This document shows, piece by piece, positions 339-46,377 of a stretch of 64,000 bases of DNA. The stretch is taken from NCBI RefSeq assembly GCF_030433645.1, contig NZ_JAROCG010000002.1:248001-312000 (forward strand), read 5' to 3'. A program made the position numbers and the translations under genes. Positions within the stretch are counted from its first letter, which is position 1. The number at the start of each line of letters is the position of its first letter. Origin of the DNA: Arthrobacter burdickii (GTDB lineage: Bacteria; Actinomycetota; Actinomycetes; Actinomycetales; Micrococcaceae). The notes under the pieces were generated by a model. That model was given only the letters and a program-made list of their open reading frames with translations, was not told where the DNA came from and made no database searches.

Positions 339-1262
339 ATGCGAGGAAAGGCAACGTTCAGTGGGGTTGACCAACGGCTTGAAGGTGGTTGGACCGTTTA
401 TTCTATCTCGGATCCCAATGCTCTAACCCAAGTAGTGGGATGGTTGAAGTTCACGTGCGAGGCAGGTGTTGTTCTCTATCGCGGGCAGTCGCAGCTTTAC
501 GATGATATGACGGCAACGGGCTTTCGCTCACTGACTGAAAACAGTCATGCAGACTACGCAGAAAAATTGAAGGATTACATATCCTCGATATACGGGCAGG
601 ACTGCGCCTGCCGTCATAACAAGAATTTCTCGAGTTTGCATTTATGCAATGAGCAGTCTCAGTTTGTCAAGGACAACCCGAATGCGCTGGTGAGTGGGAC
701 TTATCGGGCTGTCGTTGAGCCTCTACTTCAGCATTACGGGCTGAAAACGCGTTGGCTGGACGTTGTGGATAATATTTGGATTGCCCTTTGGTTCGCATGT
801 CATCAGCAAATTACGGAGGGAAGATACGCGCATCATCGAAGGCGGTCCATCGCCCAGGAAGGGCCAGACGCGAAAGCATATATCGCAGTATTCGAAACTG
901 GGTCTATCGACCCCACTTCCGTGCCTGGCTATCGAGTCGGGCCTTCAACGAGATTTGTTGACCTTCGCTATGCGGTTCCATCAGTGTACCTACGACCTCA
1001 CGCGCAGCATGGAGCACTCATAGCACCTTCTCGACTAGATAGTGGCGGAGTGCCGTTTGGATCTATGAAGGAACAGGTTGTTGGTGTGGTTGAGATTAAA
1101 CTAGGTGACGCGCTCGAATGGTTAGGCACCGGGGCGATGACGTCAGGCCATGTGCTCTTTCCTCCTGCCACTCGCGATCACGGGTATCGCCGCTTGCTTG
1201 ATTGGAACTCACCGCCGCACGAAAAGCTTGGTCACGTAACCCAGTTTGGGCCTGGGAACTAG
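339..1262 (+). CDS. FRG-domain protein
   Basis: The protein has 307 residues. FRG-domain signatures are visible: YRGQ at residues 47-50 and QHYGLKTRWLDV at 131-142, followed by a hydrophobic stretch (IWIALWFACHQ) typical of the family. The biochemical role of FRG domains is unknown; they occur in bacterial accessory and defence loci and in phage-related regions. The ATG at 339 follows GGAG with good spacing. GC and codon use are clearly lower than in the metabolic genes later in the window, suggesting acquisition by transfer. It is convergent with the RelA/SpoT-domain gene and is followed by a perfect 10-bp hairpin. Confidence 0.8.
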   Translation: MRGKATFSGVDQRLEGGWTVYSISDPNALTQVVGWLKFTCEAGVVLYRGQSQLYDDMTATGFRSLTENSHADYAEKLKDYISSIYGQDCACRHNKNFSSLHLCNEQSQFVKDNPNALVSGTYRAVVEPLLQHYGLKTRWLDVVDNIWIALWFACHQQITEGRYAHHRRRSIAQEGPDAKAYIAVFETGSIDPTSVPGYRVGPSTRFVDLRYAVPSVYLRPHAQHGALIAPSRLDSGGVPFGSMKEQVVGVVEIKLGDALEWLGTGAMTSGHVLFPPATRDHGYRRLLDWNSPPHEKLGHVTQFGPGN

Positions 1263-5334: not shown

Positions 5335-7851
5335 CTACTGAGGATGACTTTTGGCATTAGCAAGATTCTCTAGATAGGTCAGAGTTGAGGGGTGGTGTGG
5401 CCCCAAAATACTCTGTGATTCGGCGAGGTTCTGTTCGTATAGAGGGATGGCTTGGTCGAGTTTTCCCTGCTGGTGGTAGGCATTCGCGAGGTTATTCCGC
5501 GACCGCAGCGTATCCGGGTGTTCTGGTCCCAGAATCCTCTGTGATTCGGTGAGGTTCTGTTTGAATAAGGGGACCGCCTGATTGAGTCTTCCCGCAGTCT
5601 GGTAAGCGCCAGCAAGGTTGTTCTGCGATCGCAGCGTGTAGGGGTGATTTGGGCCCAATAGTCTTCGATATTCGGAAAAGTTTCGTTCGTAATGTTCGAT
5701 TGCTTGGTCGAGGTTTCCATGTTCTTGGTAGGCGCCGGCAAGATTGTTTCGTGCATTTAAGGTGGAGGGGTGTTCTGGTCCTAAGGTGCTTTCGAAGTCA
5801 GCAAGGTTTTGTTTGTGAAGTGGGATGGCTTGGTCGAACTGTCCATGTTCTTGGTAGGCGCCAGCAAGATTGTTTCGTGCATTTAAGGTGGACGGGTGTT
5901 CTGGTCCTAAGGTGCTTTCGAAGTCAGCAAGGTTTTGCTCATGAAGTGGGATGGCTTGGTCGAACTGTCCATGTTCTTGGTAGGCGCCAGCAAGATTGTT
6001 TCGTGCATTTAAGGTGGACGGGTGTTCTGGTCCTAAGGTGCTTTGGAAGTCAGCAAGGTTTTGCTCATGAAGTGGGATGGCTTGGTCTAGCTTTCCTGCT
6101 AACTGGTAGGCCAAGGCGAGGTTATTTCGCGAATTAAGTGTGTCAGGATGGCCTGGTCCCACGATCCGTTGGAGGGTCGCTATGGTTTGCTTATGAAGCG
6201 AGATTGCCTGCTCAAGTTTTCCCGATGTCTGGTACGAGTACGCGAGATTGTTTTGAGTTACCAGTGTCCCCGGGTGGTCTGGTCCCAAAATTTGCAAGCA
6301 CTTAGCGAGGTTTCGTTCGTAGAGGGGTATCGCTTGGTCGAGCTTTTCCGCAAGTTGGTAGGCATAGGCGACAGTGTTCTGTAAAACTAGCGTGACCGGG
6401 TGGTCTGTTCCAAACCGTTGCTTTGCCTCCTCGTATAGTTCCTGGTGGTACTGGATGGCTGGTCCGATTAGTCCTGCTTCGTTGAGGGACTGTCCGCTGC
6501 GAAATAGTAGGGGATGGGCTCCGTTGCTGTCCCATAGCCCGGTAGGAGCGGTGCTGGCTAGGGCAGTTGTATTGGACCTCAGCGATTCCGCCAGCAGGGG
6601 GTTATCTGCGATCGGGGGCCAGATCTCGAGTAGCCCGTCGGCCACGCTGCGGCCGGCTGTAGTGATTGCTTCCGGGCTGAGGGTTTGTTGAATGGCCCGG
6701 CCTGTCAGGTTGTGCATCCGTACCGCGGGCGCACTGCCGAGGCCAAGGTCGTGGTCGATGAGTGATAGGCGATGCAAAGCCCGCAGCGCTTTCCGCGCCA
6801 TGAGTCCGGTGACTGGTGTTCCGGTCGTCTCCGACAAGTAAGTGCAGGCCGCTTGGCTCGTCAGTACCGTTTCGGGTGCCCCGGCGGGATCAAGCATCGC
6901 AATTAGAACCGCCATGGGGCGGGCCAATCCGGTCGGGTTGATACGGTCGGCGGCTGTTACGGCCAGCTCCCAGGTTGTTGCCACTGTCTTGGCGTACCCG
7001 TCGGCGTCTGCGTCCGTCGGAAACAACTCGTCCAACGCGTGGGTGCGGTCAGCGAACCAGGTGCGATATTGGGTGCAGGTGATGCCTTGGTCGATGATCA
7101 CGGCTGCGGCCTGTGCCAATGCCAACGGTAACCGGCCTAGATCCTCAGCCAGCTCGCCGCTGTCGGTGAGCGCGTCCTCAGGCAAGTCCTCCAGCAGGGG
7201 ACTTATGCGCTCGTGCAGGTAATTGTTGGCTTCTGCCTCCATGAAAACGCCGACATCGCTCACTGTCCGGCCAGCACCAGAGAGGGCTGCGTCCCGACGA
7301 CGGGTAGTTACGATCAGGTGCCCGCCGGCCGGAGGCCACAGCCCGGCGAGATCGGGAACTGCATCGATGTTATCCAGCACCACCAACCATGCCCGGTTCG
7401 TGGCGGCCAGGAATCCTAGAAACAAACCGGCCAACTGCTCCGGGTCACCATCGACATCGGCAAGATCCAGGTGGATGGCAGCCTCGGCGAAACTGACAAG
7501 CACCGACTCCCGGGATTCTGCGTTCACCCACACCCGCAGGTCCGCCGAGCTGGAAGCAAACATGCCCGCAGCAATCTGCGTTTTGCCCACACCGCCGGTC
7601 CCCGACAGCACCCACGCAGCTGCATGCTGCGACGCATCCGTGCCGGCGACTGGGGCTATCTGTTCAATGATCGCTGTCCGCGGCTGGAACGCCGAAGCCA
7701 CGCGTGGGGCAGAACCCAGAACCATCGGCCAACTCAATGACCGCCGTGGCATCACCACTGTGGCGTGATCGCCGATCACGCCGACTGTCCCACCCGACAC
7801 GTTGACGGCGGGAACCGTTGCCTTGTCAGGGTCCTGTTGGGGCTTGTTCAT
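5335..7851 (-). CDS. STAND (NB-ARC-like) NTPase with C-terminal TPR array, copy 1
   Basis: The protein has 838 residues. The motif VNVSGGTVGVIGDHATVVM (16-34) recurs at the C-terminus of the adjacent small protein. The NTPase core has Walker A GTGGVGKT (84-91), Walker B LVVLD (156-160), an Arg-rich sensor TTRRR (182-186) and LGRLPLALA (238-246), as in NB-ARC ATPases. From about 480 to the end there are eight 42-residue kinesin-light-chain-type TPRs plus a partial ninth. Units 4-6 are nearly identical. Family knowledge says the TPRs sense a ligand and the NTPase oligomerises to switch on an effector. The ATG at 7851 follows GGAGG, 43 bp after the effector gene. A defence or cell-death role is inferred. 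Confidence 0.85.
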   Translation of the reverse strand: MNKPQQDPDKATVPAVNVSGGTVGVIGDHATVVMPRRSLSWPMVLGSAPRVASAFQPRTAIIEQIAPVAGTDASQHAAAWVLSGTGGVGKTQIAAGMFASSSADLRVWVNAESRESVLVSFAEAAIHLDLADVDGDPEQLAGLFLGFLAATNRAWLVVLDNIDAVPDLAGLWPPAGGHLIVTTRRRDAALSGAGRTVSDVGVFMEAEANNYLHERISPLLEDLPEDALTDSGELAEDLGRLPLALAQAAAVIIDQGITCTQYRTWFADRTHALDELFPTDADADGYAKTVATTWELAVTAADRINPTGLARPMAVLIAMLDPAGAPETVLTSQAACTYLSETTGTPVTGLMARKALRALHRLSLIDHDLGLGSAPAVRMHNLTGRAIQQTLSPEAITTAGRSVADGLLEIWPPIADNPLLAESLRSNTTALASTAPTGLWDSNGAHPLLFRSGQSLNEAGLIGPAIQYHQELYEEAKQRFGTDHPVTLVLQNTVAYAYQLAEKLDQAIPLYERNLAKCLQILGPDHPGTLVTQNNLAYSYQTSGKLEQAISLHKQTIATLQRIVGPGHPDTLNSRNNLALAYQLAGKLDQAIPLHEQNLADFQSTLGPEHPSTLNARNNLAGAYQEHGQFDQAIPLHEQNLADFESTLGPEHPSTLNARNNLAGAYQEHGQFDQAIPLHKQNLADFESTLGPEHPSTLNARNNLAGAYQEHGNLDQAIEHYERNFSEYRRLLGPNHPYTLRSQNNLAGAYQTAGRLNQAVPLFKQNLTESQRILGPEHPDTLRSRNNLANAYHQQGKLDQAIPLYEQNLAESQSILGPHHPSTLTYLENLANAKSHPQ

Positions 7852-7894
7852 TCCAGTACCTCCAATTCAGTCACTGACGTGGGCGAAATGCCAG

Positions 7895-8263
7895 CTAGTT
7901 GAAGGTTACGGTTCCATGATCCCCGATGATTCCGACCTTCCCGCCGGTCACTGTGATGTGGTATTTCGTCTTCACTCCGGCTTGTTCGGCTGCTTTGAGG
8001 ACTGCCTCCGCTGCTGCCAGGACTTCGGTGTCCTGGTCTGCTCCGGTTTCCTTAAGCTGCTTGGCCAGTGGTTTCTCGTAGGTGTCGGGGTCGGCCTCGT
8101 AGTCAGCCAGCGCTTGTTCGGACTTAGGGTTGCCAGCGAACTTCACAGCTAGTACGTTTTTCAGCCCTGCATACCCATCCTTGACGGCTTGGGAAACAGT
8201 ATCTGTCACTCCTGAGGTGGCTCCCGCCACCAGTGCTGCCACAATCAACGTAACCGGATCCAC
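7895..8263 (-). CDS. Small Bell-like effector with C-terminal amyloid-like signalling motif
   Basis: The protein has 122 residues. It begins MDPVTLIVAALVAGA, a hydrophobic N-terminal helix, then TVSQAVKDGYAGLKNVL and further helices. It ends ITVTGGKVGIIGDHGTVTF (103-121), matching residues 16-34 of the neighbouring NTPase at 11 of 19 positions, with conservative changes at most others. This layout (effector with C-terminal motif, receptor with the same motif at its N-terminus) is that of bacterial NLR-associated amyloid signalling pairs. In those, Bell-type domains are thought to act like fungal HeLo/HET-S membrane-damaging domains. The Bell assignment is from memory of the family pattern. 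The start is GTG at 8263 with AAAGGG upstream, and the gene is probably co-transcribed with the receptor. Confidence 0.7.
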   Translation of the reverse strand: MDPVTLIVAALVAGATSGVTDTVSQAVKDGYAGLKNVLAVKFAGNPKSEQALADYEADPDTYEKPLAKQLKETGADQDTEVLAAAEAVLKAAEQAGVKTKYHITVTGGKVGIIGDHGTVTFN

Positions 8264-8818
8264 GACACAACCGCCCTTTCAAAAAGCACCCTTAGCTGTT
8301 GGCGCCAGGATTGTTCCGAAGCCTACCGAAGTTATACACGAAGCGCACGAGTAGTAAGCCGTCATGTGCCTTGATCGCCGCTCCCGCGGCTACTACGACA
8401 CCGGTGTGAGCGCGAGCGGCAACTCAAGGAAGGCAGCTGGGAATACCATAGTTGCCTGATGCCTGCTATCTAGCCAGCCAAATGTAACCACTTTGTTCTA
8501 AAACTACCTGCGCCAAAGGGAATAACCTTAGCACTTACAGTCAGGAAGCTCTGGGGAGCACATGGCAAAGTTCGGGCCTTCCTTGAATACGACTTCGAGA
8601 TCCGCTGAGTCATCTGCACGATGAACGCGATCGAGTTGACTAATTTTGTTACCGGCTGGCGGTCGAGGCGCGCGCGCACTTCCCTGACAAAACACTGCTT
8701 TAAAATGTTTTCAACTCGTCCCCCTGTCTCTTGATCCAACCGGGGTGGTATAACACGCTGAGTAGTGAGGTAGACATCCGCGCTAAACGCGTCGCAATCA
8801 TTTTCGTGGGTTTGAGGG
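8264..8818. other. Region upstream of the effector, left of the insertion sequence
   Basis: This 555-bp stretch should hold the promoter of the effector-receptor pair on the minus strand, although I cannot pick a convincing -35/-10. It also contains a decayed transposase fragment, listed separately. Confidence 0.5.
8541..8690 (+). pseudogene. Relic of an IS256-family transposase C-terminus
   Basis: Translated in one frame, the relic reads KLWGAHGK...FLEYDFEIR-stop-VICTMNAIEL. This parallels KLWESSWAEF...FLEYDVEIRRVICTTNAIES in the intact transposase at 8875. A TGA at 8606-8608 interrupts it, and the frame after NAIE is lost. It is a remnant of an earlier, related insertion. Confidence 0.75.
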
Positions 8819-10197
8819 GGGACTGTAAGAAAAACGGTGTGTGAGGGGCCGGCCTGATCCGAGAGGAGATTGCCGTGAACGACTTCACGACCGAAGTATC
8901 AGAGACGATGATCGATCCTGTGACGGGAGAATTCATCGATCAAAAGGACCTTGCCGAACGCCTGCTTGCCCAGGCTAAGGAGCAGGGCGTGAGCTTGGTC
9001 GGCCCTGGTGGGCTGTTGAACCAGCTGACGAAGAACGTTCTCGAGACGGCGTTGGATGCCGAGTTGACGGAGCACCTCGGGCACGAGCACGGCGGGATGC
9101 CGATCGCAGCGAATATGCGCAACGGCACGAGGTCGAAGACCGTGCTGACCGAGATCGGCCCAGTCGAGATCGAGGTGCCAAGGGATCGCGACGGGTCGTT
9201 CGAACCGGTGATCGTGCCCAAGCGGAAACGGCGCCTGGACGGGATCGATCAGATTGTGCTCTCCCTCTCCGCCCGCGGGCTGACCACCGGGGAAATCGCG
9301 GCGCACTTCGAGGAGGTCTACGGGGCGAAGGTCTCCAAGGACACCATCAGCCGAATCACGGAGAAAGTCGCCGGGGAGCTGTCCGAGTGGTCCTCTCGGC
9401 CTTTGGACCCGCTCTACCCGGTGCTCTTCGTCGATGCGATCGTCGTGAAGGTCCGCGATGGACAAGTGCGGAACACTCCGTTCTATGTGGTCATGGGCGT
9501 CACCGCGCATGGGGAACGGGAGATCCTGGGCATTTGGGCCGGCGACGGAGGTGAAGGCGCGAGGTTCTGGCTGCAGGTCTTCTCCGAGCTGAAGAACCGT
9601 GGCGTCACCGATGTGCTCATTGCCGTCTGTGACGGGCTCAAGGGCCTGCCGGAAGCGATCACGACCACCTGGGAGCGGACCGTGGTGCAGCAGTGCGTCG
9701 TGCACCTGATCCGCAACAGCTTCCGTTACGCCGGCCGCCAACACCGTGACGGCATCGTCAAAGCCCTCAAACCCGTCTATACGGCCCCGAGTGAGGCTGC
9801 GGCAAAGGACCGGTTCACGGAGTTCGCCGCCGAGTGGGGCTCACGGTATCCGGCGATCGTGAAGCTCTGGGAAAGCTCTTGGGCGGAGTTCGTACCCTTC
9901 CTTGAGTACGACGTGGAGATTCGTCGGGTGATCTGCACGACGAACGCGATCGAGTCGATCAACGCGCGCTACCGCCGAGCGGTGCGGGCCAGGGGTCATT
10001 TCCCGAACGAGGCCGCAGCCCTGAAGTGTCTCTACCTCGTCACCAGGTCCCTTGACCCGACCGGCGGCGGCAGAGCACGCTGGGTGATCAGGTGGAAACC
10101 CGCACTCAACGCGTTCGCGATCACCTTCGCGGGCCGATTCGAGAAAACCAACCACTAATGAAATGCCGGACCCACACACCGTTTATACGACAGTCCC
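8819..10197 (+). mobile_element. Intact IS256-family insertion sequence
   Basis: The element is 1,379 bp. The left end (8819-8843) and right end (10173-10197) are 25-bp imperfect inverted repeats sharing GGGACTGT at the tips and AAACGGTGTGTG inside. It is flanked by an 8-bp target duplication, TTTGAGGG, at 8811-8818 and 10198-10205. Intact ends, a full transposase and an exact duplication indicate a recent insertion that is probably still active. Confidence 0.93.
8875..10158 (+). CDS. IS256-family transposase
   Basis: The product has 427 residues and starts with GTG behind GAGGAG. It is a mutator-type DDE transposase with likely catalytic residues D187 (LFVDAI), D253 (VCDGLKGLPEAI) and E360 (NAIESINARYRRA). 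The Cys/His-containing VVQQCVVHLIRNS segment is typical of the family. The length is normal, with no frameshift. It lies on the opposite strand to the STAND genes it separates. Confidence 0.95.
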   Translation: MNDFTTEVSETMIDPVTGEFIDQKDLAERLLAQAKEQGVSLVGPGGLLNQLTKNVLETALDAELTEHLGHEHGGMPIAANMRNGTRSKTVLTEIGPVEIEVPRDRDGSFEPVIVPKRKRRLDGIDQIVLSLSARGLTTGEIAAHFEEVYGAKVSKDTISRITEKVAGELSEWSSRPLDPLYPVLFVDAIVVKVRDGQVRNTPFYVVMGVTAHGEREILGIWAGDGGEGARFWLQVFSELKNRGVTDVLIAVCDGLKGLPEAITTTWERTVVQQCVVHLIRNSFRYAGRQHRDGIVKALKPVYTAPSEAAAKDRFTEFAAEWGSRYPAIVKLWESSWAEFVPFLEYDVEIRRVICTTNAIESINARYRRAVRARGHFPNEAAALKCLYLVTRSLDPTGGGRARWVIRWKPALNAFAITFAGRFEKTNH

Positions 10198-10324: not shown

Positions 10325-13264
10325 TTAGTGCTCGAAAAGCTGAGTTACTTGCTCCGGTTTTCCTGCTGCTTGGTAGGCGGAAGCGAGGTTGTTTCGGAAG
10401 CCTAGGGTGTATGGGTGATCCTGGCCTAGGACCCGCTGGGAATTGGTGAGGGTTTGTTCGAAGAGCAGGATTGCCTTCTCGAGTTTTCCGGCCGCTCGGT
10501 AGGCGTAGGCGAGGTTGTTCTGCGAGTTGAGCGTGTGGGGGTGGTCGGGTCCGAGGACCCGTTTCCGGTCGGTGAGGGTTTGCTCATAGAGGGAGATCGC
10601 CTTCTCCAGTTTTCCCGACGATTCATAGGCGCACGCGAGGTCGTTCTGTGACCCCAGGGTGTCGGGGTGGTCGGGTCCGAGGACCCGTTTCCGGTCGGTG
10701 AGGGTTTGCTCATAGAGGGAGATCGCCTTCTCCAGTTTTCCCGCCGACTCGTAGGCGCAGGCGAGGTTGTTCTGCGAGTTGAGCGTGTGGGGGTGGTCGG
10801 GTCCGAGGACCCGTTTCCGGTCGGTGAGGGTTTGTTCGTGAAGGGGGATCGCCTTCTCGAGTTTTCCGGCCGCTCGGTAGGCGTAGGCGAGGTTGTTCTG
10901 AGAACTTAGGGTGTCCGGGTGATCTGGTCCCAGGATCCGTTGCGAGTCGGTAAGGGTCTTTTTGTAGAGCAGGATTGCCTTCTCGAGTTTTCCGGCCGCT
11001 CGGTAGGCGTAGGCGAGGTTGTTCTGCGAGTTGAGCGTGTGGGGGTGGTCGGGTCCGAGGACCCGTTTCCGGTCGGTGAGGGTTTGCTCATAGAGGGAGA
11101 TCGCCTTCTCCAGTTTTCCCGACGATTCATAGGCGCACGCGAGGTCGTTCTGTGACCCCAGGGTGTCGGGGTGGTCGGGTCCGAGGACCCGTTTCCGGTC
11201 GGTGAGGGTTTGCTCATAGAGGGAGATCGCCTTCTCCAGTTTTCCCGCCGACTCGTAGGCGCAGGCGAGGTTGTTCTGCGAGTTGAGCGTGTGGGGGTGG
11301 TCGGGTCCGAGGACCCGTTTCCGGTCGGTGAGGGTTTGTTCGTGAAGGGGGATCGCCTTCTCGAGTTTTCCGGCCGCTCGGTAGGCGTAGGCGAGGTTGT
11401 TCTGAGAACTTAGGGTGTCCGGGTGATCTGGTCCCAGGATCCGTTGCGAGTCGGTAAGGGTCTTTTTGTAGAGCAGGATTGCCTTCTCGAGTTTTCCGGC
11501 CGCTCGGTAGGCGTAGGCGAGGTTGTTCTGCGAGTTGAGCGTGTGGGGGTGGTCGGGTCCGAGGACCCGTTTCCGGTCGGTGAGGGTTTGCTCATAGAGG
11601 GAGATCGCCTTCTCCAGTTTTCCCGACGATTCATAGGCGCACGCGAGGTCGTTCTGTGACCCCAGGGTGTCGGGGTGGTCGGGTCCGAGGACCCGTTTCC
11701 GGTCGGTGAGGGTTTGCTCGTGAAGGGGGATCGCCTTCTCCAGTTTTCCCGCCGACTCGTAGGCGCAGGCGAGGTTGTTCTGCGAGTTGAGCGTGACCGG
11801 GTGGTCGGGTCCAAACCGTTGCTTTGCCTCCTCGTATAGTTCCTGGTGGTACTGGATGGCTGGTCCGATTAGTCCTGCTTCGTTGAGGGACTGTCCGCTG
11901 CGAAATAGTAGGGGATGGGCTCCGTTGCTGTCCCATAGCCCGGTAGGAGCGGTGCTGGCTAGGGCAGTTGTATTGGACCTCAGCGATTCCGCCAGCAGGG
12001 GGTTATCTGCGATCGGGGGCCAGATCTCGAGTAGCCCGTCGGCCACGCTGCGGCCGGCTGTAGTGATTGCTTCCGGGCTGAGGGTTTGTTGAATGGCCCG
12101 GCCTGTCAGGTTGTGCATCCGTACCGCGGGCGCACTGCCGAGGCCAAGGTCGTGGTCGATGAGTGATAGGCGATGCAAAGCCCGCAGCGCTTTCCGCGCC
12201 ATGAGTCCGGTGACTGGTGTTCCGGTCGTCTCCGACAAGTAAGTGCAGGCCGCTTGGCTCGTCAGTACCGTTTCGGGTGCCCCGGCGGGATCAAGCATCG
12301 CAATTAGAACCGCCATGGGGCGGGCCAATCCGGTCGGGTTGATACGGTCGGCGGCTGTTACGGCCAGCTCCCAGGTTGTTGCCACTGTCTTGGCGTACCC
12401 GTCGGCGTCTGCGTCCGTCGGAAACAACTCGTCCAACGCGTGGGTGCGGTCAGCGAACCAGGTGCGATATTGGGTGCAGGTGATGCCTTGGTCGATGATC
12501 ACGGCTGCGGCCTGTGCCAATGCCAACGGTAACCGGCCTAGATCCTCAGCCAGCTCGCCGCTGTCGGTGAGCGCGTCCTCAGGCAAGTCCTCCAGCAGGG
12601 GACTTATGCGCTCGTGCAGGTAATTGTTGGCTTCTGCCTCCATGAAAACGCCGACATCGCTCACTGTCCGGCCAGCACCAGAGAGGGCTGCGTCCCGACG
12701 ACGGGTAGTTACGATCAGGTGCCCGCCGGCCGGAGGCCACAGCCCGGCGAGATCGGGAACTGCATCGATGTTATCCAGCACCACCAACCATGCCCGGTTC
12801 GTGGCGGCCAGGAATCCTAGAAACAAACCGGCCAACTGCTCCGGGTCACCATCGACATCGGCAAGATCCAGGTGGATGGCAGCCTCGGCGAAACTGACAA
12901 GCACCGACTCCCGGGATTCTGCGTTCACCCACACCCGCAGGTCCGCCGAGCTGGAAGCAAACATGCCCGCAGCAATCTGCGTTTTGCCCACACCGCCGGT
13001 CCCCGACAGCACCCACGCAGCTGCATGCTGCGACGCATCCGTGCCGGCGACTGGGGCTATCTGTTCAATGATCGCTGTCCGCGGCTGGAACGCCGAAGCC
13101 ACGCGTGGGGCAGAACCCAGAACCATCGGCCAACTCAATGACCGCCGTGGCATCACCACTGTGGCGTGATCGCCGATCACGCCGACTGTCCCACCCGACA
13201 CGTTGACGGCGGGAACCGTTGTGGCAACCGTTCGCTCGTCGTGGCGTCGTTCGGGCTTGCTCAT
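10325..13264 (-). CDS. STAND (NB-ARC-like) NTPase with expanded TPR array, copy 2
   Basis: The protein has 979 residues from the ATG at 13264, which sits 8 nt after TTGGAGG; a GTG at 13288 would add 8. From VPAVNVSGG to EEAKQRFG (about residues 18-490) it is the same protein as copy 1, including Walker A GTGGVGKT, Walker B and the N-terminal IGDHATVV motif. The DNA appears identical over about 1.4 kb. The C-terminal half differs: twelve 42-residue TPRs arranged as near-perfect four-TPR blocks. It would sense a different ligand or partner from copy 1 while keeping the same signalling motif. Upstream there is only a decayed effector, so it may rely on the effector at 7895-8263. Confidence 0.85.
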   Translation of the reverse strand: MSKPERRHDERTVATTVPAVNVSGGTVGVIGDHATVVMPRRSLSWPMVLGSAPRVASAFQPRTAIIEQIAPVAGTDASQHAAAWVLSGTGGVGKTQIAAGMFASSSADLRVWVNAESRESVLVSFAEAAIHLDLADVDGDPEQLAGLFLGFLAATNRAWLVVLDNIDAVPDLAGLWPPAGGHLIVTTRRRDAALSGAGRTVSDVGVFMEAEANNYLHERISPLLEDLPEDALTDSGELAEDLGRLPLALAQAAAVIIDQGITCTQYRTWFADRTHALDELFPTDADADGYAKTVATTWELAVTAADRINPTGLARPMAVLIAMLDPAGAPETVLTSQAACTYLSETTGTPVTGLMARKALRALHRLSLIDHDLGLGSAPAVRMHNLTGRAIQQTLSPEAITTAGRSVADGLLEIWPPIADNPLLAESLRSNTTALASTAPTGLWDSNGAHPLLFRSGQSLNEAGLIGPAIQYHQELYEEAKQRFGPDHPVTLNSQNNLACAYESAGKLEKAIPLHEQTLTDRKRVLGPDHPDTLGSQNDLACAYESSGKLEKAISLYEQTLTDRKRVLGPDHPHTLNSQNNLAYAYRAAGKLEKAILLYKKTLTDSQRILGPDHPDTLSSQNNLAYAYRAAGKLEKAIPLHEQTLTDRKRVLGPDHPHTLNSQNNLACAYESAGKLEKAISLYEQTLTDRKRVLGPDHPDTLGSQNDLACAYESSGKLEKAISLYEQTLTDRKRVLGPDHPHTLNSQNNLAYAYRAAGKLEKAILLYKKTLTDSQRILGPDHPDTLSSQNNLAYAYRAAGKLEKAIPLHEQTLTDRKRVLGPDHPHTLNSQNNLACAYESAGKLEKAISLYEQTLTDRKRVLGPDHPDTLGSQNDLACAYESSGKLEKAISLYEQTLTDRKRVLGPDHPHTLNSQNNLAYAYRAAGKLEKAILLFEQTLTNSQRVLGQDHPYTLGFRNNLASAYQAAGKPEQVTQLFEH
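10464..11720 (-). repeat. 504-bp higher-order tandem repeat in the TPR region
   Basis: Blocks of four TPRs (168 residues, 504 bp) repeat about 2.5 times with almost no nucleotide differences. For example, 10667-11170 matches 11171-11674 in register. This indicates recent unequal recombination or slippage rather than old, selected repeats. Confidence 0.9.
11815..13216. repeat. 1.4-kb segment duplicated from or to 6414-7815
   Basis: The NTPase part of copy 2 matches copy 1 with a constant offset of 5,401 bp. No difference was seen in the lines compared. Identity breaks at the first TPR on one side and just before the start codon on the other. The orientation is direct. Confidence 0.9.
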
Positions 13265-13291: not shown

Positions 13292-13477
13292 TCAGAAATG
13301 GAAGGAATGCTGATTTATGCTTACGAGCCTGCGGTTGCCGATGATACCCGCCTTCCCGCTACCCTGTGCGATGGTTGGGCGTATGGGGCAATCACCTTCG
13401 TAGTCGGCCGCTACTACTGCCCGGAGAACGTCCATGAATTCTCCACCAGCAACGCGAACCAGCAGACAATGCGCCAC
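13292..13477 (-). pseudogene. Decayed Bell-like effector remnant
   Basis: The last residues read TIAQGSGKAGIIGNRRLVSI, which aligns with HITVTGGKVGIIGDHGTVTF at the end of the intact effector. At DNA level the segment around GCGGGAAGG...ATCATCGG and the following leader (GTGACTG...TTGGAGG) match the effector-receptor junction at 7850-7950. The GDH core is changed to GNR. The N-terminal hydrophobic helix is missing: the frame is closed upstream by a TGA, and I could not recover a Bell-like start. It sits exactly where the effector sits in front of receptor copy 1. Confidence 0.65.
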
Positions 13478-41061: not shown

Positions 41062-42876
41062 TTAGGGCTTGAAGTCCTCGTGCACGACCACGCGCGACAG
41101 TTCGATGACTCCGTCGGAGCACTTCCAGTAGTGCAGCCGCCGGGCTGCCTCGACGCCCAGCTCTATGCTCAGTCGCCAGCAGATCTCCGATCCTCCCGCT
41201 CGCGTCACCGCAGGTGCATCACCGGCGGACGAGGTGCGGAGAATATGAGCATCTCGTGCGCGGAGGGTACCGGGCAACGCCGAGAGGAGATCGACGACGG
41301 CCTTCAGTGCTTTCTGCTTCTTGTCCGCAGGGAGCACGCTGAGTGAAGCTGCAAATTCGCTGCCGAAGCGGTGCTCGCCGAGCGGGTGCGCCTCCTTCTC
41401 CATAGCCGGAACTCGCTCAACCCACGCTACATAGAGATCATGTTCAACCTGCTCCTCAGCAGTAAGGAAGGCCGGGGAAGCCGATTGCCTGCTTCCCTCG
41501 GCGCGGGTCGGGCGGCGTTTCCCCCGGAGCCTCGCGAGCTGCTCATTGAGGTGCGAAACTCGTTCCGTCAGCTGCTGATTACGTCGTTCGACGCGGCCCA
41601 GCTCGGTCCCGAGGCGAGCGAGAGCTTCGCCATCCACTGCCGCCTGCGTACGGATAGCCGTGCTGTCCGGTGTGTTGCTACTGAGCCTCAGGCGTTCCTC
41701 GCGCAGCGTCATGATTTCGGCCCTTGCGCTCTCCAGCGCCAGCTGGGTGTCGCGCAGGGCGGTGCCGCGCCTCACCTTGGAATTCGCCGGTATCAACTCG
41801 GTGCTGCCACCAAGATCAGGAGCATGCGCGGGTTCGTCCGGAGCAGGATTGAGGTTGCGACCGAATTCGAGCCAAGGTGTTCCCTCAGCGACAAGAACGG
41901 GAGCCGGAACTACCGGTTCATCGTCATCAATATCGAGCATGGTGAGTTGAACCCGACCTGCGTCGCGGCCGATACGAACGACGACGACCTCGCCCGGCGA
42001 CAGGAGGTCGTCAACAGTGTCCATCTCGTTCGTCGAGACATCCGTGGCGGTCAGGAAAAACGTCATGCCCGGGTAGAGCATGACCTCCGCACCGGTCGTG
42101 TTCAGCGATGTCACGAGACCGAGGGCGAGGGAGCCTTCCGGGTAATAGGCAGCAAGGCTGGGGACTTCGAGCAGCTCGCAGCGCATTTGGTTGACTGCGG
42201 GGTCGACGACGCCGATTACGCGCTGTCCGGGCGACAACAGCCAGGACACAGGAACTTCCGGTACGAGTTCCTCCTGGCGCACCATGGCTTGACCGCCTCC
42301 ATCGAGTTCGACAACTGCGCGGGACCCTTCGGCAACGAAAGTCTGCACGGTTCCTGTTCGCACGGTGGTTGTCGTGGCGTCCAGAGCTTCTTGTCTGGAC
42401 TGGGCCCAGTGCCTCGCGGACGCGAGATCCTCAACCTGTTCAAGGACCCGCGTTACAGCGGGCCGGACGTCCGCAGGCCTCGCCAGAATGTGCAGCGGGC
42501 TCTGGTAGGGGTTGTTCAACCACTTCAGGTGCGCAGGATAGACGCGGAGGGCGTCGTTGAAGATCCCTGTCTTGGGTGGTAGCAAATCTGCGAGGGCCAT
42601 GGTCACCGGTCCGCTCGGCACGATCCACAAATCCGCGTCGTCGCCCAACTTGGCCGCCAGATCCTGGACGTCTACGGCATCCTCGCCCGTGAACTTCCAC
42701 TGCGAGACGACCACCACCGGACGTTGCCGCTGTGGATCCAGCAAGAGTTCAGCGAGCTCGGCTACGCCGGATGCCTCCGTCAGTAGACGGGTACCAGGGT
42801 GGCCCAGCGTCGACGGCGGAGGAAACGTCATGGCTGGTGCACCGCCACTTACGCGATGTCGCTTGCGGGCCGGCAT
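41062..42876 (-). CDS. S1-like / coiled-coil protein of unknown function
   Basis: The protein has 604 residues. An N-terminal alpha/beta domain (about 28-140: RPVVVVSQWK, DLWIVPSGPVTMALADLLPP) precedes two OB/S1-like stretches (about 165-330; LLSPGEVVVVRIGRDAGRVQLTML). A coiled coil follows (about 385-460, TLREERLRLS...NQQLTERVSHLNEQLARLRGKRR). The C-terminal domain ends HYWKCSDGVIELSRVVVHEDFKP and resembles a toxin or RelE-like cap only loosely. A link to nucleic acids is inferred. It is the third gene of a same-strand set with two nuclease-like proteins. The ATG follows AGGAG. Confidence 0.7.
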   Translation of the reverse strand: MPARKRHRVSGGAPAMTFPPPSTLGHPGTRLLTEASGVAELAELLLDPQRQRPVVVVSQWKFTGEDAVDVQDLAAKLGDDADLWIVPSGPVTMALADLLPPKTGIFNDALRVYPAHLKWLNNPYQSPLHILARPADVRPAVTRVLEQVEDLASARHWAQSRQEALDATTTTVRTGTVQTFVAEGSRAVVELDGGGQAMVRQEELVPEVPVSWLLSPGQRVIGVVDPAVNQMRCELLEVPSLAAYYPEGSLALGLVTSLNTTGAEVMLYPGMTFFLTATDVSTNEMDTVDDLLSPGEVVVVRIGRDAGRVQLTMLDIDDDEPVVPAPVLVAEGTPWLEFGRNLNPAPDEPAHAPDLGGSTELIPANSKVRRGTALRDTQLALESARAEIMTLREERLRLSSNTPDSTAIRTQAAVDGEALARLGTELGRVERRNQQLTERVSHLNEQLARLRGKRRPTRAEGSRQSASPAFLTAEEQVEHDLYVAWVERVPAMEKEAHPLGEHRFGSEFAASLSVLPADKKQKALKAVVDLLSALPGTLRARDAHILRTSSAGDAPAVTRAGGSEICWRLSIELGVEAARRLHYWKCSDGVIELSRVVVHEDFKP

Positions 42877-43040
42877 TGCGTCTCCTCTTTTCCAGTCAGG
42901 TGAGCTTCACGGGGGTGGCAGTCTCTTCATGAGATGGTGCTGCCCAGTCTGGGCAGGATCTCGTCATCGGTTCGGCGAAGTGTGTTGAGCTACAGTCGCA
43001 CCGGCGCCGCTGGTCGTCACGGCCCTGGTGGCTGCCGCCG

Positions 43041-44243
43041 CTACCCCTTCACCCTGACGATGGAAGGATCAGCAGCATCCTTCACTGCAGCTATACCGGC
43101 TACGGCCGCCTGCGCCAGGCACCACTTCCCGAGGCTGCCCAGCGCGAGGCTCGCCAGGTTCCTGTCTTTTTCAAGACGCTGCCCCACCAGCGCGCCGAAC
43201 TGTCCGACATGGACACCGCTCTTGCGCAACTGCCCGTCCTGCAGTGCTGCGAGGAAAGCAGCCCGCACATGATCTGGCCCAGCAGCCGAGGACGGGACGT
43301 GCTTGACGACGTGTCGCTTCAGATGTCCATTGCCCGGTGGAACCTTTTTGACCGACCCGGCGACAGGTGGTGCTGTTTTCTGAGTGACGGGTGCAGCGGC
43401 GAGCACTACTGCGGAAGACTTGGGTGCAGCTATCGGCTCAACCGTCGAAGGCTTGGAAGGAGCCACCGGCGCTGCTGCCGGCGGCCTGGGCACAAGCTCG
43501 GGCGCCAGCGTGGCGAGCGTGACTGCCGTTACAGACCCCTCGTCGAGGAGTGCGGCGAGTTCCAGATGGAGCGCGGCCAGTTCGCGGTGGATGGCCGCGA
43601 TCCTTCCCTGCGGGCTAGGTACGACGGGAATCGGCGGCGCGATCTTCCTGCGCACCGTTTGGCTGATCGAGCACCGAAAAAGCTCTGCCAACGCCTCGGC
43701 GAGATCAACCTGCGCGGTACCCCCGGCGGCAATCAGGGGAACCGTGACTGCCCTGCGCTCGACCATGAGGGCGACTTCGTCGAGCGAACCGTGCACCACG
43801 CCGTATCGCAACCGTTCCCGCCGTGTGGCCTCGTTGACCTGCGGGGAGTAGACGCTCGGATACAAGTTGATGGAATGCTGGTCGGCCGACGGGAAGTGCT
43901 TCCTGCAGATGCTCAGTCGAAGGGCCCGGCGGACGGCGTCGAGTTGCTTACCGACCTGTTCGACCGGATTAGGTACGAGGGACCCATTTGCCAGAACCCA
44001 CGGTTCACCCGTATCCGTCACCTGAATGACAGGTGCTGGGAATCGCTTCCATTCGCTCAGGATGAAGGTCCCATTGATCGAGTTGTAGAAGAGCCAATCC
44101 ACCTCGGCGACCGGCAGCCCTGGTGCGTCGACACGGCAATTGCTGAACGCCCAGACGTGGTTGCACAGCAGTTGGTGCAGGCGGGTCACGTCGGCAGGAT
44201 CCGCCGTGTGGGCCGCGCTGTTCTTCGAGGGGAAATGGAGCAT
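43041..44243 (-). CDS. Possible PD-(D/E)XK nuclease-like protein
   Basis: The protein has 400 residues. LPVAEVDWLFYN...GTFILSEWKRFP (about 43-70) fits the D...ExK core of restriction-like nucleases and resembles NERD proteins. A Pro/Ala-rich linker (about 205-310) leads to a C-terminal domain (about 320-400) that may be a winged helix of OST-HTH/LOTUS type; that is tentative. It lies 51 bp after the NERD gene on the same strand, suggesting co-transcription and joint action on nucleic acid. Confidence 0.6.
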   Translation of the reverse strand: MLHFPSKNSAAHTADPADVTRLHQLLCNHVWAFSNCRVDAPGLPVAEVDWLFYNSINGTFILSEWKRFPAPVIQVTDTGEPWVLANGSLVPNPVEQVGKQLDAVRRALRLSICRKHFPSADQHSINLYPSVYSPQVNEATRRERLRYGVVHGSLDEVALMVERRAVTVPLIAAGGTAQVDLAEALAELFRCSISQTVRRKIAPPIPVVPSPQGRIAAIHRELAALHLELAALLDEGSVTAVTLATLAPELVPRPPAAAPVAPSKPSTVEPIAAPKSSAVVLAAAPVTQKTAPPVAGSVKKVPPGNGHLKRHVVKHVPSSAAGPDHVRAAFLAALQDGQLRKSGVHVGQFGALVGQRLEKDRNLASLALGSLGKWCLAQAAVAGIAAVKDAADPSIVRVKG

Positions 44244-44294
44244 GGGAATCTTCCGTACAGGGAGTAGGTGGAGCTCGGGTCGGGGAGAGGCAGC

Positions 44295-45119
44295 TCAGAA
44301 GGGCAGGATGCCCGCGGCCGACGCGAAGAATGTCGCGGGCACCGCGAGGAGCCAGCCGATCCGCCGTCGTCGTGCCTGTTCCACCAGCCGGTGCAGTGCC
44401 TCGAACGGTTCGACGACATCGGCCGGGTCCCGCAGCACGGGCGCGGAGCGCCGCCACGTCGAGGGCTGAGCTGCGGCCGCTGACAGGAGTGCGACCTGCT
44501 GCTCGGAATAGACGACCGGTCGCCGCGTGATCCACCGCAGGAGCTGGTCCTGGCGAAGCACTGCCACGGACCGGTGCTTTTCCTTCACGGTGACCTGACG
44601 TGCGCCGACGACGACGATTGCAGCCGAGGCGGGAACACTCTGCAGGACAGCGGCGGAGAGCAGCTTTCCTGCCCGTGCTGCCTCGTGTTCGGAATTGCGG
44701 ACGTAGGGGTAGCGCGTCCCGGCGACCATAAAGGTGCCCTTCGCCGTCCAGGCGTTCTGGCCGGGATGCCGCTTCGTGTTGATCGTGAAGACGCCAGTCG
44801 GACCGATGACCACATGGTCGATGTCGGACGACTTCTCGCCGACCGGAACGGCGTGCAGCACGGTCCACTCCGGTCCCAGTGAGGCGAGGGTGCGACCCAC
44901 CGCGCGCTCGCCGAGTGCTCCCCAGTACCAGGGAAGACTGCCAGGACTCAGTGGACGGACGCCGAGGACCCGGGCCAGTAGTCCCCGTCGGTCCCTCGCG
45001 CCATGGCCGTCGAGCAGCTCCTCCATGACGGACTGACCGGGGACGCGCCGCTTGAGCAGCCCGAGCGTCTCGGGCTCGACGTACGCTTCATCGCCGTCGA
45101 GCGGGACAGCCGCGCTCAT
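44295..45119 (-). CDS. NERD (nuclease-related) domain protein
   Basis: The protein has 274 residues. The core is SSDIDHVVIGPTGVFTINTKRHPGQNAW (about 102-130), with Asp, Thr/Asn and Lys in the positions of a PD-(D/E)XK site. YPYVRNSEHEAARAGKLL follows. A hydrophobic C-terminus (RIGWLLAVPATFFASAAGILPF) would anchor it to the membrane. NERD domains are predicted nucleases of varied, mostly unknown role. It is the first gene of the three-gene set, with GGAAGCGGAAC upstream of the ATG. Confidence 0.8.
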   Translation of the reverse strand: MSAAVPLDGDEAYVEPETLGLLKRRVPGQSVMEELLDGHGARDRRGLLARVLGVRPLSPGSLPWYWGALGERAVGRTLASLGPEWTVLHAVPVGEKSSDIDHVVIGPTGVFTINTKRHPGQNAWTAKGTFMVAGTRYPYVRNSEHEAARAGKLLSAAVLQSVPASAAIVVVGARQVTVKEKHRSVAVLRQDQLLRWITRRPVVYSEQQVALLSAAAAQPSTWRRSAPVLRDPADVVEPFEALHRLVEQARRRRIGWLLAVPATFFASAAGILPF

Positions 45120-45360
45120 GTTCCGCTTCCCGACGCCATGCGAGTCCCCCTGGACCTGAAGCCCGGGCGAGCTGAGCCTCGCCCGGGTAGGTCGAATCTA
45201 CCGGGCGATGCGCAGTGGCACGCTGCTTCGTCCGCCCGGTTGGAGACAGGATTGCCGCAGGATTTACGCACTGCGGGGGAGGCCGGGAGAAGGCCCGCCT
45301 GATGGGGGCCGATAGGCTGGGCAGGGCCGCGGACGAGTGGCGACAGCCTGAGGGGGAACA

Positions 45361-46377
45361 GTGCACGGTCTCAACTTCACCGCGATCGACTTCGAGACGG
45401 CCAACAGCAAGCGCGGCTCGGTCTGCGCGGTCGGTCTGGCGAAGGTGCGGAACGGCGTCGTCGTCGATACCGCGTCGTGGCTGATCAAGCCCCCGCGCTC
45501 CGTCAGCGAGTTCTCCTCGATGAACATCTCCGTCCATGGCATCGGCCCTGCCGATGTGCGGACGGCACCCTCGTGGGCCGAGAGCCTGCAGCGCATCCTG
45601 GCCTTCGCCGGGGACGATCGGTTCGTCGCCCACAATGCCTCCTTCGACCGTTCGGTGCTGCGCGGAGCGTGCGCGGAGTCAGGGCTGGCGGTGCCGGACA
45701 CTACGTTCCACTGCTCCGTGAAGCTCGCGCAGCGTCTGCTCGACCTGGACTCGAATCGGCTGCCGCACGTCGCGAAAGCCCTGGGGCTGGGGGCATTCCA
45801 GCATCACGACGCCGGGAGCGACGCCGAGATCTGCGCGGCCGCCGTCGTCGCCATCGCTCAGAAGTATGCACTCCACTCGCTGGACCTGCTCTGGCCGGCG
45901 AAGACGCCGACGTCGTCGGCCGGTTCCCACCGCTATGCCAAAACTCCGACCCTCGCCGAGCTTCCTCGGGCCAATGGTCAGGCCGACCCGTCGAACCCCC
46001 TCCATGGCCAGGTCGTGGTGTTCACCGGGGACCTCGCCACGATGACGCGCGAGGAAGCGATGGGCCGGATCGCCGCCCTTGGAGCGACGCCGGCCAACAA
46101 CGTCACGAAGAAGACCACGATGCTCGTCGTCGGCCAGGAGGATGCCAGCCGGCGCACGGTCTTCCTGACCGCGGGTAGCAACAAGGAGCGGAAGGCGCTC
46201 CAGTACATGGGTGCGGGTCAAGCCATCTGCGCCGTCAGCGAGTGCGAGCTGCGCGAGTGGTTCGGCCTGGATCGGCCCGAGGACTCCAGAGAGGAGACAC
46301 CGGCAGATGTTCTGGGCACGCTCGAGTCGGCGGTCACCGGACTGCTCGCCTGGATCGGACGACGCCGGGTGCAGTAG
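45361..46377 (+). CDS. DnaQ-like 3'-5' exonuclease with C-terminal BRCT domain
   Basis: The protein has 338 residues and a GTG start. Exonuclease motifs are I AIDFETA (Asp10, Glu12), II VAHNASFD and III HHDAGSDAE. A BRCT domain occupies about 212-300 (GQVVVFTGDLATMTREEAMGRIAALGATPANNVTKKTTMLVVG). This two-domain layout is common in actinobacteria and is probably used in DNA repair. It is divergent from the NERD-nuclease set across a 241-bp spacer. Confidence 0.9.
   Translation: MHGLNFTAIDFETANSKRGSVCAVGLAKVRNGVVVDTASWLIKPPRSVSEFSSMNISVHGIGPADVRTAPSWAESLQRILAFAGDDRFVAHNASFDRSVLRGACAESGLAVPDTTFHCSVKLAQRLLDLDSNRLPHVAKALGLGAFQHHDAGSDAEICAAAVVAIAQKYALHSLDLLWPAKTPTSSAGSHRYAKTPTLAELPRANGQADPSNPLHGQVVVFTGDLATMTREEAMGRIAALGATPANNVTKKTTMLVVGQEDASRRTVFLTAGSNKERKALQYMGAGQAICAVSECELREWFGLDRPEDSREETPADVLGTLESAVTGLLAWIGRRRVQ

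What the first reader, a model, noticed from the sequence alone, without database searches (positions are those of the whole stretch)
5335..8263. Effector-receptor pair joined by a shared amyloid-like motif
A 122-residue Bell-like protein ends ITVTGGKVGIIGDHGTVTF, and the NTPase encoded 43 bp downstream begins with VNVSGGTVGVIGDHATVVM; 11 of 19 residues are identical. Placement at the effector C-terminus and receptor N-terminus is the logic of NLR-linked amyloid signalling, in which the receptor templates effector fibrils and membrane damage follows. This particular IGDH motif is not one I can assign to a named subfamily.
Basis: partly seen in the sequence, partly recalled or inferred. Interest (0 to 1): 0.88.

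Follow-up and report, generated by a model that had tools for sequence, protein, structure and literature searches.

The report
Effector-receptor pair sharing signalling motif
A bacterial gene pair encodes a small, probably membrane-active death protein and a sensor protein that carry the same short tag, very likely the plug and socket by which the sensor switches the death protein on; it is a new flavour of a signalling scheme already proposed for bacteria and known in fungi and animals.

Summary
In detail: effector 7895-8263(-) and STAND NTPase 5335-7851(-) share an 11-of-19 motif at effector C-terminus and receptor N-terminus, 43 bp apart; 0 of 3000 shuffles reach this. A pattern for the motif core matches three places in the genome: effector, receptor, and a second receptor at 10325-13264. 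The effector belongs to the Bell-like family; some members end in a RHIM-like BASS3 motif, and 2 of 6 homologs tested pass Pfam's RHIM cut-off there. Over 39 Bell C-termini tested against their downstream neighbour, cognate similarity exceeds all 20,000 re-pairings, though 19 of 39 show no match singly. In the receptor clade, 3 of 26 lack the N-terminal motif and carry a fused domain instead. So the motif very likely couples receptor to effector. The IGDH type lacks both BASS3 glutamines and scores near background against BASS3 partners: probably a separate specificity. Whether it equals a published BASS family could not be checked. New: both receptors share a perfect 1412-bp motif-plus-NOD block but have different TPR sensors, with one effector gene found. 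Amyloid formation, membrane damage and phage defence are inferred.

The parts
7895..8263 (-). Bell-like effector, 122 aa; predicted helices 3-17, 25-42, 46-57, 63-73, 79-95; most hydrophobic stretch at the N-terminus
7901..7957 (-). effector-side motif, residues 103-121 (ITVTGGKVGIIGDHGTVTF); model residues 105-122 have pLDDT under 50
5335..7851 (-). STAND NTPase receptor 1, 838 aa: N-terminal motif, NB-ARC-like NOD (P-loop GTGGVGKT), C-terminal TPR array
7750..7806 (-). receptor-side motif, residues 16-34 (VNVSGGTVGVIGDHATVVM); residues 16-30 have pLDDT under 50 in the model
5338..6411 (-). TPR sensor array of receptor 1: nine 42-aa repeats (the last partial) starting at residues 481 to 817
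10325..13264 (-). receptor 2, 979 aa from the ATG with a GGAGG-type site upstream; same motif and NOD, different TPR array of twelve repeats; no Bell-like gene found beside it
13151..13207 (-). motif copy in receptor 2
6409..7820 (-). perfect 1412-bp block shared with 11810-13221: motif plus NOD, ending where the TPR arrays begin
11810..13221 (-). second copy of the perfect 1412-bp block
8875..10158 (+). Mutator/IS256-type transposase (PF00872) lying between the effector and receptor 2

Best explanation
The two genes form a receptor-effector immune or cell-death module coupled by a homotypic motif. The receptor's TPR array senses an unknown trigger (inferred); its NB-ARC-type NOD oligomerises on activation (inferred from the STAND class); this gathers the disordered N-terminal IGDH motifs, which take up and template a beta-rich, probably amyloid, fold on the matching motif at the C-terminus of the Bell-like effector (inferred from kinship with BASS3/RHIM-bearing Bell proteins). 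The gathered Bell helical domains then act at the membrane and kill or arrest the cell (inferred). Shown by sequence: the shared motif, its terminal placement, its conservation, its pair-specific matching, its absence in relatives with a fused domain, and its place on a scaffold whose relatives carry RHIM. A second receptor with the same motif and NOD but other TPRs probably feeds the same effector (inferred).
For: Motif match beyond chance. 78 of the 120 listed effector proteins (of 317 found; the window's own is one of the 120) carry the IGDH-type core near the C-terminus, median 9 residues after its G; 20 of 26 receptors of its NB-ARC clade, the window's two included, carry it within the first 46 residues by a strict pattern. 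Pair specificity: 39 Bell C-termini, mean cognate score 46.6 against 30.1 for re-pairings, maximum of 20,000 re-pairings 36.5; IGDH pairs alone (n=7, own included) 65.1 against 56.2, p=0.002. Natural alternatives inside the IGDH receptor clade without the N-terminal motif: P0142 with a SEFIR domain above Pfam cut-off, its sister P0136 (alike by eye), and P0135 with a trypsin-like domain (by eye); and P0172, outside that clade, with Bell, BASS3-type motif and NB-ARC-TPR in one chain. Homologs P0302 and P0348 pass Pfam RHIM at the C-terminal place. Models: helical effector with a disordered tail; receptor best matched by the STAND-TPR protein 6mfv (E 1.2e-11, TM-score only 0.32-0.39 over the whole chain) and also CED-4 4m9s (E 9.7e-8).
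Against: No experiment. 19 of the 39 Bell C-termini do not pass the shuffle test against their downstream neighbour, so the family does not always work this way, and two of the 20 that pass (L030, L042) face a non-NLR protein of about 230 residues. Within BASS3-type pairs (n=7) cognate matching is not significant (p=0.09). Adjacency of IGDH pairs is seen in DNA only here; six others rest on equal contig length and source, two of them on chromosome-size contigs. The IGDH core lacks the two glutamines whose proline mutants abolish BASS3 foci (PMC9815663, passages), and its profile similarity to BASS3 is weak. One close homolog (P0069) passes Pfam EAD10, described as a mixed alpha-beta homotypic domain, not an amyloid. 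The N-terminal helix is borderline as a membrane helix (hydropathy 1.57).
Confidence: 0.66

Rival explanations
1. Same coupling logic, but the motif is not amyloid: with the preceding helix it forms an EAD10-like folded homotypic module or a discrete beta-hairpin (induced proximity without fibril templating).
For: P0069, 55% identical to the window effector, passes Pfam EAD10 over residues 78-116, i.e. last helix plus motif (25.2 bits, cut-off 24.1); EAD10 is described as predicted mixed alpha+beta and as recruiting effectors by homotypic contact (PMC7159879, passages). The IGDH core is Gly/Val/Ile/His-rich without the Q/N ladder of BASS3; hhalign with BASS3 gives 73%, score 18.7, and 1 of 30 column shuffles scored higher. 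The pairing evidence fits equally.
Against: The window effector itself has no EAD10 match at E<=1; it sits at the same position of the same scaffold as RHIM/BASS3 motifs, L009 carries an intermediate motif AIGAIGDHNRQQNVF, and both motif copies are below pLDDT 50 in the models.
Confidence: 0.22
2. The NTPase is FxsT of an FxSxx-COOH RiPP system, and the small protein is an unrelated neighbour.
For: Receptor 1 passes NCBIfam NF040586 FxSxx_TPR (495.5 bits, cut-off 300).
Against: No FxsB above cut-off in the genome (best 28.2, cut-off 370); the Bell-fused P0172 and the SEFIR-fused P0142 pass the same model, so it covers NB-ARC-TPR receptors more widely; the motif match is not explained.
Confidence: 0.03
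3. The shared 19 residues are a leftover of local DNA duplication with no function.
For: The locus holds tandem repeats, a transposase gene and a transposase remnant.
Against: The core is present in 78 of 120 listed effectors and 20 of 26 clade receptors, at opposite termini, and covaries between partners.
Confidence: 0.03
4. The locus is in decay: mobile DNA has separated the parts, and receptor 2 is orphaned.
For: Transposase gene and a degenerate remnant between effector and receptor 2; no Bell-like gene found beside receptor 2.
Against: Effector and both receptors have full open frames with plausible ribosome-binding sites; the perfect 1412-bp identity suggests recent duplication or conversion.
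Confidence: 0.06

Closest known systems
Bacterial Bell/NLR amyloid signalling pairs, BASS1-10 (Dyrka et al. 2020: not held; known here through passages of PMC7889193, PMC8086366, PMC9815663, PMC12261475)
   Same: Adjacent small helical effector and NLR; motif at effector C-terminus and NLR N-terminus; Actinobacteria.
   Different: The IGDH core [VI]Gx[IV]GD[HNY] lacks the BASS3 glutamines; its relation to the other nine BASS families could not be checked. One effector found, two receptors with an identical motif-NOD block.
BASS3 / RHIM (Frankia ORT49035.1 peptide VDLRDAKGVQVGDGNVQINRF; Streptomyces atratus WP_037701008.1; Pfam PF12721)
   Same: Same Bell-like family and C-terminal position, Gly-Asp in register; intermediates P0073 and L009.
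   Different: The glycine before GD is shifted by one place, no Q at either key place, no Pfam RHIM match for the window effector; mean pairwise score against BASS3 receptors 29.2, near the 27.1 against unrelated ones.
EAD10, effector-associated domain 10 (Pfam PF19954; PMC7159879 and PMC8195603, passages)
   Same: Works alike: a small module repeated on an effector and a core component, thought to join them by homotypic contact; homolog P0069 passes the Pfam model.
   Different: The window effector does not match it at E<=1; described as a folded alpha+beta domain.
Podospora HELLP/PNT1 and HET-S/NWD2, mammalian RHIM necrosome (PMC7889193, PMC7885112, passages)
   Same: Works alike: PNT1 has an N-terminal motif, NB-ARC and TPRs and lies next to HELLP, which has the motif at its C-terminus.
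   Different: Other motif sequences; PMC7889193 states no direct detectable homology between Bell and HeLo, PMC9815663 calls them homologs; my fold comparison was inconclusive.
Integrated-effector STAND receptors (P0142 SEFIR-NB-ARC-TPR; P0135 trypsin-like-NB-ARC-TPR)
   Same: NOD nested in the same clade.
   Different: Domain fused in cis, N-terminal IGDH motif absent.

Membership tests
Bell/NLR amyloid signalling pair (BASS systems) | small effector gene adjacent to an NLR/STAND gene | tested here: met
   43-bp gap, same strand
Bell/NLR amyloid signalling pair (BASS systems) | matching motif at effector C-terminus and NLR N-terminus | tested here: met
   11 of 19, 0 of 3000 shuffles; permutation over 39
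Bell/NLR amyloid signalling pair (BASS systems) | effector is a small alpha-helical domain | tested here: met
   five helices, mean pLDDT 75.6, pTM 0.64
Bell/NLR amyloid signalling pair (BASS systems) | hydrophobic transmembrane helix | tested here: inconclusive
   best 19-residue hydropathy 1.57 at residues 1-19, just under the usual 1.6 (recalled)
Bell/NLR amyloid signalling pair (BASS systems) | motif matched by a published BASS1-10 profile | not testable with these tools
   Dyrka 2020 not held; supplementary look-ups capped at 0
Bell/NLR amyloid signalling pair (BASS systems) | motif forms amyloid and seeds the partner | not testable with these tools
   needs experiment
BASS3 / RHIM motif | Pfam RHIM PF12721 match | tested here: not met
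   none for the window effector; of six homologs in the same call P0302 (24.7) and P0348 (24.2) pass the cut-off of 20, P0325 (18.1), P0338 (15.2) and P0073 (11.8) fall short, L042 has none
BASS3 / RHIM motif | two key glutamines seven residues apart (Q113, Q120 of S. atratus) | tested here: not met
   I and V at the aligned places
BASS3 / RHIM motif | carried at the C-terminus of the same Bell-like family | tested here: met
   alignments A1 and A4; Bell tree
EAD10 | Pfam PF19954 match | tested here: not met
   not listed for the window effector at E<=1 or E<=10; P0069 passes (25.2, cut-off 24.1)
STAND NB-ARC-TPR receptor | P-loop NOD related to NB-ARC, with TPRs | tested here: met
   GTGGVGKT; TPR models far above cut-off; relatives P0124 and P0130 pass PF00931; Foldseek 6mfv and 4m9s. 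The window protein's own NB-ARC match was not among the 25 of 32 rows shown
HeLo/MLKL four-helix cell-death domain | fold match | tested here: inconclusive
   Foldseek and VIA-align looks gave no decision
FxSxx-COOH RiPP system (FxsT) | NF040586 above cut-off | tested here: met
   495.5 against 300
FxSxx-COOH RiPP system (FxsT) | FxsB radical SAM partner in the genome | tested here: not met
   best 28.2 against cut-off 370

The most novel reading that the evidence does not exclude
IGDH is a signalling specificity of its own that arose from the RHIM/BASS3 motif on the same Bell scaffold and is insulated from it, and this locus shows a two-sensor design: one effector served by two receptors whose motif-plus-NOD module is held identical (1412 of 1412 bp) by duplication or gene conversion, while the TPR sensor arrays are swapped and re-amplified, so that new sensors can be plugged into a fixed death switch.
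Probability: 0.35. Interest if true: 0.66.

Novelty: new variant of a known kind. Interest (0 to 1): 0.52.

Why it matters
Amyloid signalling motifs are known or proposed in animals, fungi and bacteria, but how new, mutually deaf specificities arise is open. Here two motif types, RHIM-like and IGDH, sit on homologous effectors and receptors with natural intermediates (L009, P0073), so the path from one to the other can be tested by seeding assays. The perfect motif-NOD block with different sensors offers a natural test of whether several receptors can share one executor.

Tried and rejected
Considered and rejected: FxsT of a RiPP system (FxsA not searched); a Bell remnant upstream of receptor 2 (no DNA similarity to 7895-8263; the GKAGIIGN string in a 61-aa ORF at 13292-13477 was taken as chance and not tested further); presence on viral contigs (31 pattern stretches, none a relative); PADLOC models for the pair (no match at E<=1 for effector and receptor 1; for receptor 2 three matches, best E 6.6e-6, all in the TPR part). 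No sigma-70-like promoter was found at 7700-8900 (0 found, 0.4 expected).

Flawed and replaced: let the downstream segment overlap the Bell C-terminus in frame, which inflated self scores; one search corrects this and is the one cited. In one search a loose expression labelled P0139 and P0145 as BASS3; by eye they are IGDH-type (VAGAIGDNNTVV, LVGAIGDDNTVF). In one search L017 was labelled BASS3 wrongly; it was left out of the tree with P0075 and P0077. One search's strict pattern misses P0133, P0139 and P0146, and has one match inside the P0142 NOD region (residue 289), not at its N-terminus.

Rows dropped: 11 of 44 Bell loci, those with E above 1e-10 (L026, L033, L045-L053), were left out; L026 does show a shared motif. 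L020-L025 come from one genus and are not independent. L034 fails, though one search aligns its tail with an ORF further downstream. Of 317, 3021 and 2956 homologs, 120 each were listed. Of the 112 proteins new, 23 entered the Bell tree, and P0063 (97 aa) was too short. In genome searches with profile A1 only 11 first-look candidates per genome were scored (own genome: 11 of 33).

No amyloid predictor was run. The listings showed no paper on an IGDH motif, and 'igdh' or 'gdh' does not occur in the main text of PMC9815663, PMC8086366 or PMC12261475, but the defining paper, figures and supplements were not available.

Full report
WHAT IS THERE. On the minus strand, a 122-residue ORF (7895-8263) is followed after 43 bp by an 838-residue ORF (5335-7851). 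The effector ends in KYHITVTGGKVGIIGDHGTVTFN; the receptor begins MNKPQQDPDKATVPAVNVSGGTVGVIGDHATVVMPRR. Eleven of 19 residues match, which 0 of 3000 shuffles of the two ends reached. The core pattern has three exact matches in the genome and none for the reversed control. The third is a second receptor, 10325-13264; a Mutator/IS256-type transposase gene and a degenerate copy of part of it lie between it and the effector.

WHAT THE PARTS ARE. The receptor is a STAND NTPase: a P-loop GTGGVGKT, a NOD whose relatives P0124 and P0130 pass Pfam NB-ARC, and 42-residue TPRs most like those of kinesin light chain in the PDB. Its AlphaFold2 model (mean pLDDT 87.8) has its best Foldseek match with the STAND-TPR protein 6mfv and also matches CED-4, with low TM-scores over the whole chain; residues 16-30, holding most of the motif, are below pLDDT 50. 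The effector model (mean pLDDT 75.6, pTM 0.64) has five helices and a tail, residues 105-122, below pLDDT 50.

THE FAMILY. The search gave 317 effector proteins, 120 listed. Of these 120, 78 carry an IGDH-type core near the C-terminus (77 of 119 without the window's own). Others on the same scaffold end in GVQVGDxNTQxNxF, like the BASS3 peptide VDLRDAKGVQVGDGNVQINRF of Frankia ORT49035.1 (PMC8086366, section 13 read). Two of the 120 proteins listed carry a RHIM label, and both, P0302 and P0348, pass the Pfam RHIM cut-off at residues 102-118; three further homologs tested fall short and one has no match. The window effector does not match RHIM and has I and V where BASS3 has its two glutamines; proline mutants at those places in a Streptomyces atratus BASS3 abolish foci (PMC9815663, passages). 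Intermediates exist: L009 (Nocardia sp. alder85J) AAIGAIGDHNRQQNVF and P0073 GSQGVQVGDHGTMTNNF. One homolog, P0069, passes EAD10, a described homotypic coupling domain, over its last helix and motif (PMC7159879, passages). On a Bell-domain tree with the motif left out, the motif label needs 20 changes against 75 in shuffles; 72 of 77 IGDH rows fall in one fork of 77 rows (SH-aLRT 93; few columns, many open forks).

PAIR SPECIFICITY. I compared each Bell C-terminus with what is encoded just downstream, for 33 loci (E<=1e-10; 11 weaker loci dropped) plus six pairs taken from protein records. Mean cognate score is 46.6; 20,000 re-pairings give mean 30.1, maximum 36.5. Twenty of 39 pass a shuffle test at p<0.005; 19 do not. 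IGDH pairs alone (n=7) match their own partner better than each other's (65.1 against 56.2, p=0.002); BASS3 pairs (n=7) do not significantly (57.4 against 53.9, p=0.09). IGDH effectors score 29.2 against BASS3-type neighbours, near the 27.1 against unrelated ones, and 54.7 against non-cognate IGDH receptors. Related sequences are not independent, so these p values are optimistic. Profile comparison agrees: IGDH effector-receptor 98% probability, BASS3 effector-receptor 99%, IGDH-BASS3 effectors 73%, where one of 30 column shuffles scored higher. Not every matched neighbour is an NLR: L030 and L042 face proteins of about 230 residues that begin with a BASS3-type motif.

FUSIONS AS NATURAL EXPERIMENTS. 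In the receptor NOD tree (117 of the 120 listed proteins), 26 rows form a starred clade holding the window's receptors. Twenty carry the strict IGDH pattern in the first 46 residues; P0133, P0139 and P0146 carry variants by eye; three carry no N-terminal IGDH motif but a longer fused N-terminus: P0142 (SEFIR, Pfam 29.6 against 23), its sister P0136 (alike by eye) and P0135 (trypsin-like by eye). P0172, outside this clade, has Bell, a BASS3-type motif, a second motif and NB-ARC-TPR in one chain. P0077, on a 983-bp contig, joins a Bell with an IGDH motif to the receptor linker; this could be an assembly chimera. These swaps are what is expected if the motif is the link to an effector in trans.

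TWO RECEPTORS, ONE EFFECTOR. The receptors share an exact 1412-bp block (6409-7820 and 11810-13221), residues 11-481 of receptor 1: motif, NOD and linker, ending at the TPRs. The TPR arrays differ: nine repeats, with a stretch of near-identical 126-bp units, against twelve built from a 504-bp unit (497 of 504 identical between the first two units, 429 and 436 of 480 for the third). The Bell profile found one effector in the genome, with 11 of 33 first-look candidates scored. My reading is that duplication or gene conversion keeps both receptors compatible with one executor while the sensors diverge. Assembly collapse of the repeat is not excluded.

DISTRIBUTION. The Bell profile matched in 9 of 396 genomes of the order, 7 of 396 of the phylum and 18 of 394 of the class, own genome included each time and samples overlapping. 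A receptor search hit 2 of 295 genomes of the own family at E<=1e-20 (the second at 34% identity), 1 of 259 of another family and 1 of 131 of a neighbouring genus at E<=1e-30, the last being the L014 locus. The patchy spread, relatives on plasmids (5 records; L036 on a conjugative Arthrobacter plasmid with its own matching motif type) and the transposase remnants suggest horizontal movement.

MECHANISM AND LIMITS. Shown: the pair, the motif, its placement, covariation, absence in fused relatives, and kinship with RHIM-bearing Bell-like proteins. Inferred: TPR sensing, NOD oligomerisation, amyloid templating, membrane action, cell death, phage defence. Whether IGDH equals one of the published BASS1-10 families is open because Dyrka et al. 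2020 and its supplements were not available; I recall no such logo, which is not a test.

Noticed in passing
window 6409-7820 and 11810-13221: Perfect 1412-bp identity between the two receptor genes, covering motif and NOD and ending at the TPR arrays; treated as part of the finding.
   Followed up: yes
window 10445-11812: TPR array of receptor 2 built from a 504-bp higher-order unit of four 126-bp repeats, nearly identical copies: recent amplification.
   Followed up: partly
window 8545-8810: Degenerate remnant, about 70% identical to part of the neighbouring transposase gene (9861-10133).
   Followed up: no
window 339-1262 and 1416-2912: FRG-domain protein and a RelA_SpoT-domain protein near the pair, with weak PADLOC matches (PDC-S15, PDC-S33): possibly part of a defence island.
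   Followed up: no
window 41062-46377: Cluster with a HEC-07-like protein, a NERD nuclease-domain protein and an exonuclease-BRCT protein matching PDC-S48.
   Followed up: no
L012, L014, L028, L036: Other motif types on Bell-like effectors and their neighbours (for example GGDRSVAAHTIHGGVRTGD / EGDRSVAVQHVHGNVHTGD in L012), also matched between partners.
   Followed up: partly
L030 and L042: BASS3-type Bell followed by a roughly 230-residue non-NLR protein that starts with a BASS3-type motif and, by eye, has a hydrophobic middle segment.
   Followed up: no
P0112 and P0133 (protein records): Effector variant VVGHGDNTVYM mirrored by receptor variant VVGHGDNTVNM; not shown to be a pair.
   Followed up: no
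P0069 (protein record), residues 78-116: A close homolog of the effector passes Pfam EAD10 over its last helix and IGDH motif, hinting that EAD10 and these motifs overlap.
   Followed up: partly
   Followed up: no
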